This document shows, piece after piece, positions 26,143-30,512 of a DNA stretch of 64,000 nucleotides. Origin of the DNA: Polytrichum commune (taxonomy: Eukaryota > Streptophyta > Polytrichopsida > Polytrichales > Polytrichaceae). A model generated the notes under the pieces. It was not told where the DNA came from, made no database searches, and saw nothing but the letters and a program-made list of their open reading frames with translations. Where the stretch lies: NCBI GenBank assembly GCA_950295325.1, contig OX485803.1:73483554-73547553 (forward strand). Reading direction: 5' to 3'. The translations under genes were made by a program, and so were the position numbers. The stretch's first letter is position 1. Each line of letters begins with the position of its first letter.

Positions 26143-29100
26143 ATGGCGACTGCAATCTCCGCAACATGTTTCGCGTCCATTTTTGACCCCTGTGCTAGAT
26201 ACGTGCGGCCATCGAGTGAGGCACATTGCCAGGGTCGCCAAACTGGAGCCACCGGGAAATTATCCAGCTCAAGGAATTGCTTAACCGCCAGTATAACTAG
26301 CGGTAATCAAGTATGTCGATCGAACAGAGCGCAGGATCAATGGCTCGGACATACGACATGGTGGCCCTGTAGGTCTGCCGGTGAAGGCTTAGGGTTTTCC
26401 AGTACGAAGAGAAGATTTTCACTGCATTTATCATGGCAAAACCAGTCGATTCGCTCCGTGCAGCATTCTCACTTTTTTTTAGGTTCTTCTGCCAGGTACT
26501 CTTCACGGGAGCCGGCTTCAAATGCCTGAGAAATTTCTTGCATTTGTAGTATTTGTTATTTTAAAGAGCTGGTGATTGGTAGAGTTATGCGGTTGTTACT
26601 TGGAAGCCTGTCCTACGTCTGATATGTACGGAGGATATGGTCAATTTGAACTCGATTTGTCTCATTCAATAAATTATTGCGGCTAGGGACAACCTCATCC
26701 TGAATGACCAATCGGTCGTATTTAACTGAACATAATCTTTTGAGTTGTTCTTCAGCGCAGCCGAATTTGTTGAATAACGTCAGGCCTAGGGTTTGAATAA
26801 CGTCAGGGCCGCTTTCGAGAGTGGTACTTTGTTAAGATTTTCCTTTGTGGCACTTCAAGGACTCCTAATTTTGAAGGCCCAGTATAGCCAGGACTTTTGT
26901 AGCTGATTTGATGTAGTAAGCTTAATTTCTTATCCAATGGCAGAAGTGCGCGCTTGTGGAGAGCGCAGAAGGATTTGTCTTCTTCCGGTTGCACCAATGA
27001 CGCTATTGATGTTTCTCGGGTGCCAGTTTATGTTATGCTTCCCCTGGACCTCCTTGTTTTTGGTGACTCCCAGGATATGAAATTGCGGAGGTATGCTAAA
27101 GCTTACATTCACATTTATGTTTTCATATATAAGGAGACTCTATGAAACGTGGAAGCAGATAAATATTTGTGAAGGTGGCCGAATTGAAACTTGCGTGGTG
27201 TCCATACATGAAAAATGCCAACGTGTCTTTGTTAATGCAAGAAGGTGTTGCAGCCAGTGGAGTCTGTAAGTCAATAAGGCAATTCGATCACTGAATTTAT
27301 TAACTAGTATTATTAGCTGTTATGTTTTAAGCATTCTGGAGATGTTTGCTTCAAGATAGTTCAAAGGGGCGAAGGATAGAATCTTTCTATGCTTCTCTCC
27401 CAATGCAATCCCTCTTCCATGGCATGAACTTTTGAGTTTACATATATTACTTCATAGTCCTGAATTGATAAGAGGTTCTTCACATGATAGTATGGTTCAT
27501 GGATATTGAAGGAAGACGATGATGTTGATGTCAGAGCAGTTTTTCTGATCATGAAGAGTTGCTGGTCTGAATGCTCTTTATATCAGCGAGGCTAACTCGA
27601 TACCTGGATGATGCATCTCTTGGTCATTGTTAGTCAGAGCATTTTGTGGGCTTGTGACAGAGTCAAAGGCCTCAGAATAGCACTACAAGCACTGAAACTA
27701 GCAGGAGTTGATGGAGTAACAGTAGACCTATGGTGGGGTGCGGTGGAGCGGCATGGACCTCTTGTGTATGACTGGTCTGCTTATGAAGATCTCTTTAACA
27801 TGGTCATCGAAGCAGGACTGAAAGCACAAGTGATCATGTCCTTCCATGCGTGTGCTGAAAGTTTTAACGACAACAAGAACTTTGTTGGTCTTCCTCTCTG
27901 GATTACCAAGGTTGGAGGCAATTGCACATCTTCTGTAGAACAATTTTCCTGCATCGATCTCATGACATCGTGTGTGCCTCAATTGTGCAGAGTCCAATTA
28001 TAACAGACAGTCAGGAATATTGCAAAGCTGTTCAACTAACCCTTGGATGTGGACTTAGTTTTTCAAAATATATTCCATGTTTTCAGATCCCAGCGATTCA
28101 TTCCTAATATTTTGAATGCAAACCCTGTCGATGCAGATTGGGGAAACCAACACTGATATCTTCTACAAGGATAGAGGAGGTAATTATAGCAAAGAGTACT
28201 TGTCACTTGGGATTGACGAAATTCCAGTGCTGAAAGGGCGTACAGCAGTGCAATGCTATGAGGACTTCATGTGCAGCTTTGTGAAGACATTCACACCTCT
28301 CCTCGGTTTGACTATTGTCAAGATCACTATTGGCCTAGGTCCTGCTGGAGAGCTAAGGTTTAGGTTCTCCTTTTTCATGGCCTTGGTTCCATGTATGAGC
28401 TTGGCTAGTGCTTAATGAAAAGGAATGCTTTAATGACCTGATCAGATGTAGCCTTAACTATTCTGTAGAGGCTTGTGATGACCTATTAATCAGCTACAAC
28501 CTTTCGTTCTGTAGATTCTTCCATGGAGATAAGACTGTCCAAACTGCTCTGATATTGAATCTTGTAGTGTTTTTCCTGATCTACTACTCTTGCAGATATC
28601 CAGCTCATTCACAGGTGGATGGTCGGTGGCGATTTCCTGGGATTGGGGAGTTTCAATGCTATGACAAGTACATGTAAGTTTCTATCCACTTCAAGTCAGT
28701 AAGATAGTAGGTCTGCTGGGTTGGTGAAGTTGTATGTAAAGTGAGCGCTTATGAGGTGGGCCATGTGCTCATTGGCAATTCGAGAGTGTTATAAGACAAA
28801 AGACTTGAGATCCACACTTTAGTATGTAGGTCCTCCATGTTGTTAGTGGCATGCCCTGTGCACGAGACTGCAGTCAACAGTACAAATCTGTATGTGGGGT
28901 TTGTATTTTTTGTTTCTTTTGAAGGTAAAGCTTGTTGTCTGGGTGTAGGCTTGCTGATCTGCAGAAGGCAGCCCTGGATGTTGGCGAACCTATGTGGGGC
29001 TATTCAGGCCCACTTGACGCAGGCGGTTATAACAGTACACCGTGGGAAGTACCATTCTTCCAGCTGCAAGTGGGAGCTTTTGCTTCAGACTATGGTCGTT

Positions 29101-30512
29101 TTTTCCTGGTATGTTTCAAGGGAGATGTACTGCATGAGTCGTCATGCTATGGAAAAGATTGAGTTTGGTTCATCTCCATCGAGACAAAATTCCTTGTGAT
29201 TTACAACAAGAGTTATGAATACTTGGGAAAGTGTGAATCATTCATTGCCTACTGTTTTTTACCAACTCAACTGTGGGTAGCAGAGATTCTCTATACTAGA
29301 CAAACGAACTTGAATATTCTAAAAAAACACTTGTGACAAGTCCAGTCTTATGCAGGAATGGTATAGTACCAAGCTGATCGAGCATGGTGACAAGATATTG
29401 AGCAAGGCTGCCAAATTGCTGAAGGATGCCATTCAAGATTATCCGTCCCGCATGGTTTACCTTGATGCTAAGCTTGCAGGTGTTCACTGGTGGTATCGAT
29501 CACATTCACATGCTGCAGAACTCACTGCCGGCTACTATAATACTTCCTACCGGGATGGATATGAGCCCATTGCTGCTATGTTAGCTGAGCATGGAACTGC
29601 TCTTGGATTTCCGTAAGTGTCTTTCTCGCTCAGTAATGTTATGAAAAGTTAGGCTTATGCTATTTGTAAGCGTAGAGAGCAGACACATCCAGTTTTGTGC
29701 ATTTTATGTTGAGGGATAGTAAGAAACAAAAATCATGCCACGTAAAAGATCCTTGGGTTGGAGTTCATCCTACTCTTATTCACACTGGGTTTGTAAAACC
29801 TACAGGTTTAGTTGATTCCTCCCTTTTTCTAAATTTTTTGGTCTCTTCCTTTAACTTGAATCTTTTCTCTGACAGGTGTATAGAAATGCTTGACAGCGAG
29901 CATCCTGAATATTGCTTCTGCAGTCCTGAAGGACTACTTGGTCAGGTAGGCTCATCATCCTTCACAGCAACTACATGCTTTTGAGAGAAGTCCTGTTTCT
30001 CAAGATGGAGATGGAGATGAACCAAATTAAAGTCTGATGTGACATGTAATACTTTTGGATCCGAGCTGTTGTTTATGTGTTCCCATGAAACCCCTAGCAG
30101 GCTAATAGTTTTTGCCTGATTTATTCCACAAGCAGGTGCAACGCGCTGCTCATCATGCAAACATACATGTTGGTGTGCAGAATGCAATCATGCGCTTTGA
30201 TGAGGTTTGTAACCACTATGCCCTATTAATATACCGCACCAATAATAGAACACATTCTCCCACATCAATACCTAGTGACTAATTGTATGAAACCATTCTG
30301 ATCATCTGCAGGAGGCATTCGAGCGTGTCATCTACAGGTCCTACAACCCGAGCTACCCAATCCACACGTTCACATTCCTCCGACTCGGCGAATCACTGCT
30401 CTCTAGCCGCAACTGGCAAAATTTTGTGCGATTTGTGAAGATCATGTGCTCCAAGAGCAATGGGTCTGGTCGCTCAGGCTCCAAATGTGGAGACCTCTGT
30501 AAAAGTCTTTGA
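26143..30512 (+). CDS. BAM4-like: Plastid beta-amylase homologue, BAM4-like, probably non-catalytic
   Basis: Ten exons reconstruct in perfect phase: 26143-26495, 26944-27090, 27661-27910, 28137-28357, 28596-28673, 28949-29108, 29356-29612, 29876-29945, 30136-30204 and 30312-30512, totalling 601 codons. All introns are GT-AG. The ATG at 26143 has A at -3 and G at +4. Residues 1-~117 are Ser/Arg-rich and acid-poor, like a chloroplast transit peptide. The glycosyl hydrolase 14 domain starts at [11 protein letters not shown] (143-153). Asp189, His229, Asp237, the general-acid Glu322 ([11 protein letters not shown]), Lys442 and His447 match soybean beta-amylase D53, H93, D101, E186, K295 and H300. 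The general-base position (soybean E380) is Gln527 ([13 protein letters not shown]), inner-loop Thr342 is Pro489, and the GGNVG flexible loop reads AESFN. Arabidopsis BAM4 and BAM9 have similar losses and act in starch-breakdown control without catalysis. BAM4-type similarity ([19 protein letters not shown]) is the better fit. A role as starch regulator is inference. Exon 1 and its junction with exon 2 are less certain than the rest. Confidence 0.92.

What the first reader, a model, noticed from the sequence alone, without database searches (positions are those of the whole stretch)
26143..30512. Beta-amylase homologue that has lost the catalytic base but kept the catalytic acid
Aligning by eye to soybean beta-amylase, the acid Glu186 is kept (Glu322), as are D53, H93, D101, K295 and H300. 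The base Glu380 is Gln527 (codon CAG at 30178-30180), inner-loop Thr342 is Pro489, and the flexible loop GGNVG is AESFN. Losing one of the two essential glutamates predicts a non-hydrolytic protein. Known: Arabidopsis BAM4 and BAM9 are plastid proteins that influence starch degradation without normal catalysis. The combination of BAM4-like framework and BAM9-like E-to-Q change is notable.
Basis: partly seen in the sequence, partly recalled or inferred. Interest (0 to 1): 0.7.

Follow-up and report, generated by a model that had tools for sequence, protein, structure and literature searches.

The report
Beta-amylase lookalike lacking its catalytic base
This land plant, probably a moss, carries an intact gene for a starch-enzyme lookalike that has lost one of its two essential catalytic residues, a kind already known from Arabidopsis as a regulator of starch breakdown but reported missing from the model moss.

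Summary
Ten exons with GT-AG introns (26143-30512, +) join into 601 codons. Glu322 aligns with soybean Glu186, Gln527 (CAG, 30178-30180) with Glu380 and Pro489 with Thr342; the loop GGNVGD reads AESFND. The four other beta-amylase genes found in this genome keep both Glu, the Thr and GGN(V/I)GD. Changes cluster at the active site (10 of 21 invariant columns there, 12 of 105 elsewhere, p = 0.0004). No contiguous plus-strand reading of the gene span encodes Glu-Asn-Ala. A non-hydrolytic protein is therefore the sound prediction; activity was not assayed.

It is probably not a recent duplicate of the genome's BAM1/3-type gene (AU p = 0.0004, SH p = 0.06). Its features match a mixture of those published for Arabidopsis BAM4 and BAM9. 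BAM4 membership is likely but untested with verified sequences. What is new is the setting: plastid psaB points to a moss, though not conclusively, and Physcomitrium patens is reported to lack this clade. A new member of a known kind, of moderate interest.

The parts
26143..26495 (+). exon 1: start ATG and N-terminal extension, probable plastid transit peptide
   Evidence: the ATG at 26143 gives the first Met of its open frame; 27% Ser+Thr and 2 acidic residues in the first 60 aa
26944..27090 (+). exon 2, start of the GH14 domain ([10 protein letters not shown])
27661..27910 (+). exon 3, with D53- and H93-equivalents and the altered flexible loop
27854..27868 (+). codons for AESFN in place of GGNVG; the following Asp (27869-27871) matches D101
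28137..28357 (+). exon 4, ends in GPAGEL and the first bases of an Arg codon
28350..28352 (+). GAG codon of Glu322 (= soybean Glu186, catalytic acid), kept
28596..28673 (+). exon 5
28949..29108 (+). exon 6
29356..29612 (+). exon 7, with K295- and H300-equivalents; its last two bases CC begin the codon of Pro489 (= Thr342), completed at 29876
   Evidence: CCN is Pro whatever the third base
29876..29945 (+). exon 8
30136..30204 (+). exon 9, encodes [23 protein letters not shown]; the intron before it has the position and phase of an intron in subfamily II genes C3a and C3b (absent in C2)
30178..30180 (+). CAG codon of Gln527 (= soybean Glu380, catalytic base), changed
30312..30512 (+). exon 10, C-terminus with R420-equivalent and stop

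Best explanation
The gene encodes a non-catalytic beta-amylase homologue of the BAM4/BAM9 type, most likely of the BAM4 lineage and plastid-targeted, in a land plant that is probably a moss. Shown here: an intact gene model, the GH14 domain, the acid Glu kept, the base Glu replaced by Gln, the inner-loop Thr by Pro and the flexible loop altered, while many other pocket positions are kept. Inferred: it binds a maltodextrin or a starch chain end in the old active site, cannot activate the attacking water, and so does not cut. It would act as a glucan-reading regulator or scaffold for the active enzymes, with the BAM1/3-type protein of C6 as the likeliest partner.
For: Gene and residues. Of the 26 active-site positions printed, 16 are kept and 10 changed (94, 96-100, 192, 342, 380, 383). 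Of the 16 that I recall as substrate contacts, picked after seeing the result, 12 are kept. The unrooted tree puts the gene on the branch between C6 + BAM1 (99.9/100) and the other sequences (94.9/97); placing it next to C6, next to BAM1 or next to either half of subfamily II is rejected by AU (p 0.0004, 0.0004, 0.033, 0.033). Published features of AtBAM4 and AtBAM9. BAM4 binds amylose and amylopectin, and bam4 plants have excess starch. A solved chain, 1v3i, carries Gln at the same position in the soybean-type sequence, so that change is compatible with a folded protein. One intron (position and phase) is shared with subfamily II genes C3a and C3b, none with C6; two papers place BAM4 in subfamily II and BAM9 in subfamily I by intron positions. 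Neutral change of 0.1 substitutions per site left 0 of 1000 simulated copies without an internal stop.
Against: AtBAM4 itself has Arg, not Gln, at the base position. No verified BAM4 or BAM9 sequence was available, so clade membership is untested; the tree with recalled sequences gives only 73.3/77. One shared intron has an expectation of 0.042 by chance, so it is weak. The SH test rejects only the pairing with 7upv, and c-ELW keeps the placement next to the soybean-barley group. The gene has a long branch (0.78 against 0.24-0.28 for C6 and BAM1; 7upv has 0.73), so long-branch effects are possible. At 0.01 neutral substitutions per site 450 of 1000 copies stay open, so very recent loss of function is not excluded. 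Glucan binding is not shown, and pocket conservation was reported weak for BAM4 orthologues. No expression or targeting data. Plastid rpoA and the size of C8 fit the moss reading poorly (see full report).
Confidence: 0.6

Rival explanations
1. It is a BAM9 orthologue rather than a BAM4 orthologue: a non-catalytic regulator that does not need to bind glucan in the pocket and works through partner proteins such as AMY3 or BAM1.
For: Gln at the base position and Pro at Thr342 are exactly the AtBAM9 residues. No separate BAM9-like locus was found. A review lists a predicted BAM9-AMY3 complex, and another cites BAM9 binding BAM1 and starch granules.
Against: [quoted passage not shown] BAM9 is placed in subfamily I by intron positions, and none of the nine introns here is shared with the subfamily I-like C6. 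With recalled sequences it is 51.7% identical to AtBAM4 and 37.4% to AtBAM9 (lead only).
Confidence: 0.12
2. It is a pre-duplication relic: it descends from the common ancestor of BAM4 and BAM9 before they split and belongs to neither.
For: Mixed features: Gln/Pro as in BAM9, loop as in BAM4. Only one gene of this type was found in the genome.
Against: BAM4 and BAM9 are both reported from liverworts and placed in the land-plant ancestor, so they would have split before mosses arose. BAM4+BAM9 as one branch is well supported in only one of three analyses (56/90/0.6).
Confidence: 0.15
3. It is an active enzyme after all, on another substrate or with another residue acting as base.
For: Acid Glu, Asp101, Lys295, His300 and Arg420 are kept. 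A review leaves open a yet unidentified substrate for BAM4 and BAM9.
Against: Base and inner-loop Thr are both lost; mutation of any of the three key residues drastically lowers activity, as summarised in PMC8774843. Recombinant BAM9 with the same two residues showed no activity.
Confidence: 0.06
4. It is a decaying gene on its way to being a pseudogene.
For: Long branch (0.78); no transcript data; 450 of 1000 copies stay open after 0.01 neutral substitutions per site, so a very recent decay would leave no trace.
Against: Ten exons with intact splice sites and 601 open codons; 104 of 126 invariant columns kept and the changes clustered at the active site; 0 of 1000 neutral copies stay open at 0.1 substitutions per site.
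Confidence: 0.05

Closest known systems
BAM4 (AtBAM4, clade IV of Thalmann et al. 2019)
   Same: Acid Glu kept, base Glu lost, Pro at Thr342, flexible loop present but not conserved; subfamily II by intron positions; found in hornworts and liverworts
   Different: AtBAM4 has Arg at the base position; here Gln
BAM9 (AtBAM9, clade V)
   Same: Gln at the base position, Pro at Thr342, acid Glu kept
   Different: BAM9 lacks the flexible loop and is placed in subfamily I by intron positions; here the loop is present and no intron is shared with the subfamily I-like C6
BAM1/3-type enzyme of the same genome (C6:41264100-41266171)
   Same: Highest identity among the verified comparators, 51.4% over 420 columns
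   Different: All catalytic residues intact, three exons, no shared intron
Solved chain 1v3i (soybean-type beta-amylase with Gln at 380)
   Same: The same Gln in the same place
   Different: As I recall an engineered mutant in an otherwise complete active site; here loop and inner loop differ too

Membership tests
GH14 beta-amylase family (PF01373) | profile match over the curated cut-off | tested here: met
   333.9 bits, cut-off 27, residues 147-576
catalytically competent beta-amylase | acid Glu186 | tested here: met
   Glu322
catalytically competent beta-amylase | base Glu380 | tested here: not met
   Gln527; Glu in 8 of 8 comparators with a full active site, in 7upv and in the Bacillus chain 1b90
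catalytically competent beta-amylase | inner-loop Thr342 and flexible loop GGNVGD | tested here: not met
   Pro489 and AESFND
BAM4 clade | acid Glu kept, base Glu lost, Thr342 to Pro, flexible loop present but altered | tested here: met
   the replacing residue differs (Gln here, Arg in AtBAM4)
BAM4 clade | groups with BAM4 sequences in a tree | tested here: inconclusive
   no verified BAM4 sequence at hand; with recalled AtBAM4 and AtBAM9 the pair is supported 73.3/77
BAM4 clade | intron positions of subfamily II | tested here: inconclusive
   1 of 9 introns at a subfamily II position and phase, expectation 0.042; AtBAM4's own intron positions not seen
BAM4 clade | plastid localisation | tested here: inconclusive
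   143 residues before the domain and a transit-peptide-like composition; no targeting predictor at hand
BAM9 clade | Gln at 380 and Pro at 342 | tested here: met
BAM9 clade | flexible loop missing | tested here: not met
   loop present
BAM10 clade | base Glu conserved in the majority, Thr342 often Ser | tested here: not met
BZR1-BAM (BAM7/BAM8) | BES1/BZR1 domain joined to the amylase domain | tested here: not met
   no BES1_N match in the protein; the 6 BES1_N loci found are at least 6 Mb from each of the 5 amylase genes
BAM1/3 progenitor (clades I-III) | groups with C6 or BAM1 | tested here: not met
   AU p = 0.00044 and 0.000415; but SH p = 0.06 and 0.054

The most novel reading that the evidence does not exclude
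The gene preserves the ancestral state of a single, ancient pseudoenzyme lineage. The base was first exchanged for the near-isosteric Gln together with Thr342 to Pro, which turned the enzyme into a glucan-trapping reader. Later BAM4 changed Gln to Arg and BAM9 lost the loop. The moss keeps the first stage, and its absence from Physcomitrium is a loss.
Probability: 0.25. Interest if true: 0.6.

Novelty: new member of a known kind. Interest (0 to 1): 0.38.

Why it matters
How BAM4 binds starch, and why, is still open. The 2019 survey could not tell whether the lack of BAM4/BAM9-type genes in Physcomitrium was a loss or a gap in the data. A chromosome-scale genome, probably of a moss, in which one such gene was found would favour loss. 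It also offers a simple setting to test the idea of a glucan reader: one pseudo-amylase whose pocket still has D101 and H300, and one BAM1/3-type enzyme.

Tried and rejected
A lone sequencing error at the CAG codon: rejected, because several other active-site residues changed too. An alternative exon that restores Glu: the other two frames of exon 9 give no Glu-Asn-Ala, and none of the 9 window matches to the DNA pattern for Glu-Asn-Ala lies on the plus strand of the gene; a motif split by an intron was not searched for. A recent copy of the BAM1/3-type gene: rejected by AU, not by SH. A second BAM4/BAM9-type gene in the genome: none found with the family profile, with this protein or with recalled AtBAM9; such searches are lower bounds. 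A weak match to a porin family is below its cut-off (15.8 of 20.9 bits) and was taken as chance.

Led nowhere: relatives in viral contigs and, twice, in prokaryote genomes: 74, 53 and 55 stretches matched a pattern, none was confirmed. Rooting with the Bacillus chain left the root unresolved (39.4/44, branch 2.66). The paper that defined the intron subfamilies and one on the LSF1 scaffold are not held. A paper search for beta-amylase with E380Q found none.
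Full report
What is there. The region 26143-30512 on the plus strand holds ten exons. All nine introns begin with GT and end with AG, and the exons join to an open frame of 601 codons. The proposed start is the first ATG of the open frame that holds exon 1. Pfam finds one family over its cut-off, glycoside hydrolase family 14, at 333.9 bits over residues 147-576. GC is 46.7% at third codon positions and 39.5% in the introns.

The active site. I aligned the protein with the four other beta-amylases found in the genome and with five solved chains copied from the output. 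Their labels in my scripts (Arabidopsis BAM1, barley, soybean) are partly recalled; the tool names 8j5d 'Beta-amylase 1, chloroplastic' and the others 'Beta-amylase'. One search printed 26 active-site positions in soybean numbering. Sixteen are kept: 53, 93, 95, 101, 184, 186, 295, 298, 300, 301, 302, 343, 346, 381, 382 and 420. Ten are changed: E380Q, T342P, Y192H, L383I and loop positions 94 and 96-100. Eight comparators with a full active site agree at 126 columns, and 22 of these are changed here. Leaving out each of the eight in turn gives 1 to 9 changed of 127 to 135. The changes are concentrated in the flexible loop, the inner loop and the stretches round the two Glu: 10 of 21 invariant columns there against 12 of 105 elsewhere (Fisher p = 0.00038). 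In the leave-one-out controls 0 or 1 of 21-22 are changed there. The solved chain 7upv, which keeps Glu380 but departs from the active pattern elsewhere, shows a similar concentration (12 of 21 against 22 of 105, p = 0.002). The four paralogues counted among the eight are judged active by their residues only.

Can Glu be restored by splicing? The two other frames of exon 9 do not encode Glu-Asn-Ala. The DNA pattern for Glu-Asn-Ala occurs nine times in the window, about as often as chance (mean 6.8), and never on the plus strand of this gene. So no exon with the contiguous motif lies hidden in the gene span.

The genome. G000 has 407.8 million bases in 64 contigs. I asked for the length of 14 contigs: seven are of chromosome size (42.1-77.9 Mb), and C8 is 146,561 bases. 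C8 carries psaA and psaB. The best matches of psaB among solved structures are 8htu, 6l35 and 7ksq (1704.7, 1702.4, 1700.6 bits), then 9lut (1667.2) and 7wfd (1630.3). 6l35 is from the moss Physcomitrella patens (passages of PMC7884438). For 7ksq and 8htu I saw only a search listing of papers on moss photosystems and state transitions and otherwise recall them as moss; the species of 9lut is unknown to me. Against a moss: plastid rpoA lies on C8, and I recall that many mosses, Physcomitrium among them, have lost it from the plastid; and C8 is longer than the moss plastid genomes that I recall. An early-diverging moss would fit. A moss is the likeliest source, not a proven one.

The family in this genome. 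The Pfam profile and this protein both find five beta-amylase loci and no sixth; recalled AtBAM9 as a query finds the same five. They are C6:41.26 Mb (3 exons, 68.2% identical to 8j5d over 428 columns), C2:21.70 Mb, C3:29.32 Mb and C3:35.41 Mb (the last three share most of their introns), and the window gene. My model of the 35.41 Mb gene lacks its true start. All four others keep Glu186, Thr342, Glu380 and GGN(V/I)GD. The six BES1/BZR1 loci found are at least 6 Mb from each of them.

Where it belongs. In an unrooted maximum-likelihood tree of 10 sequences and 423 columns (LG+G4), the window protein sits on the branch between C6 + BAM1 (99.9/100) and all the rest (94.9/97). Placing it next to C6, next to BAM1, next to the group of C2, C3a, C3b and 7upv, or next to the soybean-barley group is rejected by the AU test (p = 0.00044, 0.000415, 0.033, 0.033). 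The SH test does not reject these four (p = 0.06, 0.054, 0.51, 0.51), c-ELW keeps the last of them, and only the pairing with 7upv is rejected by all. A Bacillus outgroup did not resolve the root. Of the nine introns one, before exon 9, has the same position and phase as an intron of C3a and C3b (C2 lacks it); none is shared with C6. About 0.04 such coincidences are expected. Two papers state that intron positions put BAM1, BAM3 and BAM9 in subfamily I and BAM2 and BAM4-BAM8 in subfamily II (passages of PMC9195466 and PMC10341951), so this weak evidence leans to BAM4.

What is known. From passages of PMC8774843: the first catalytic Glu is present in BAM9 and BAM4, and the other is Gln in BAM9 and Arg in BAM4; the anchoring Thr is Pro in both; [quoted passage not shown] recombinant BAM9 was inactive; bam4 mutants have excess starch; how BAM4 binds starch is unknown. 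From PMC6394054 (outline, parts 1 and 2 of 3 of the Results, and passages): BAM4 orthologues occur in hornworts, liverworts and ferns, and the genomes of P. patens and Selaginella contain only the ancestral BZR1-BAM type and the progenitor of clades I-III, which may be due to loss or incomplete data. From passages of a 2026 review, PMC12892837: BAM4 binds amylose and amylopectin, and BAM4 and BAM9 may be regulators. Passages of a jujube survey say that both Glu are highly conserved in all nine of its genes (PMC9195466), which sits badly with Gln in AtBAM9; passages of a grapevine survey report one gene without Glu380 (PMC8004407). The word 'moss' does not occur in the main text of PMC6394054. 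No title listed in the searches (9 of 9 shown; 6 of 6; 20 of 35) describes such a gene in a moss. Supplementary tables were not read, so a moss BAM4 may be listed there.

Mechanism. A solved chain, 1v3i, has Gln at exactly this position in the soybean-type sequence. I recall that it is the E380Q mutant of Kang et al. 2004, studied with a maltodextrin; I did not read that paper. Many pocket residues are kept here, including D101 of the loop and H300, so a protein that still holds a chain end but does not cut it is the simplest reading. The altered loop, Pro342 and His192 speak for altered and perhaps weaker binding. Partner choice and targeting are inference; the first 60 residues resemble those of the two paralogues with a long N-terminal extension (27% Ser+Thr and 2 acidic here; C6 25% and 5, C3a 25% and 1) and not those of C2 (12% and 8).

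Verdict. The protein is very probably not a normal beta-amylase. It is most probably a member of the BAM4 lineage in a moss, a known kind, with an instructive mixture of BAM4 and BAM9 features.

Noticed in passing
window 33357-36089, minus strand: A DUF569 beta-trefoil domain (35505-36089, 153.2 bits) beside a long open frame of 629 aa (33357-35246) without a Pfam match, with four copies of a repeat of 69-72 bases period at 33828-34143.
   Followed up: partly
window 24523-24989: Three copies of a 49-base repeat spaced 219 and 199 bases apart, upstream of the gene.
   Followed up: no
window 3745-4377, 58693-59022, 62741-63079: Probable remnants of mobile elements: a C17orf113-type zinc finger, an RNase H stretch and a DDE_Tnp_4 endonuclease piece.
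   Followed up: partly
L014 (C2:21697500-21703500): This subfamily II beta-amylase gene has, in my splice model, a C-terminal extension of over 100 residues rich in Ser, Asp and Glu with short repeats.
   Followed up: no
G000:C4:47707642-47707821 and G000:C5:337267-337371: Fragments of psaA/psaB with stop codons on two chromosome-sized contigs, probably plastid DNA inserted in the nucleus.
   Followed up: no
G000, 6 BES1_N loci: None of the six BES1/BZR1 loci found lies near any of the five beta-amylase genes, so no BZR1-BAM fusion was seen in this genome.
   Followed up: yes
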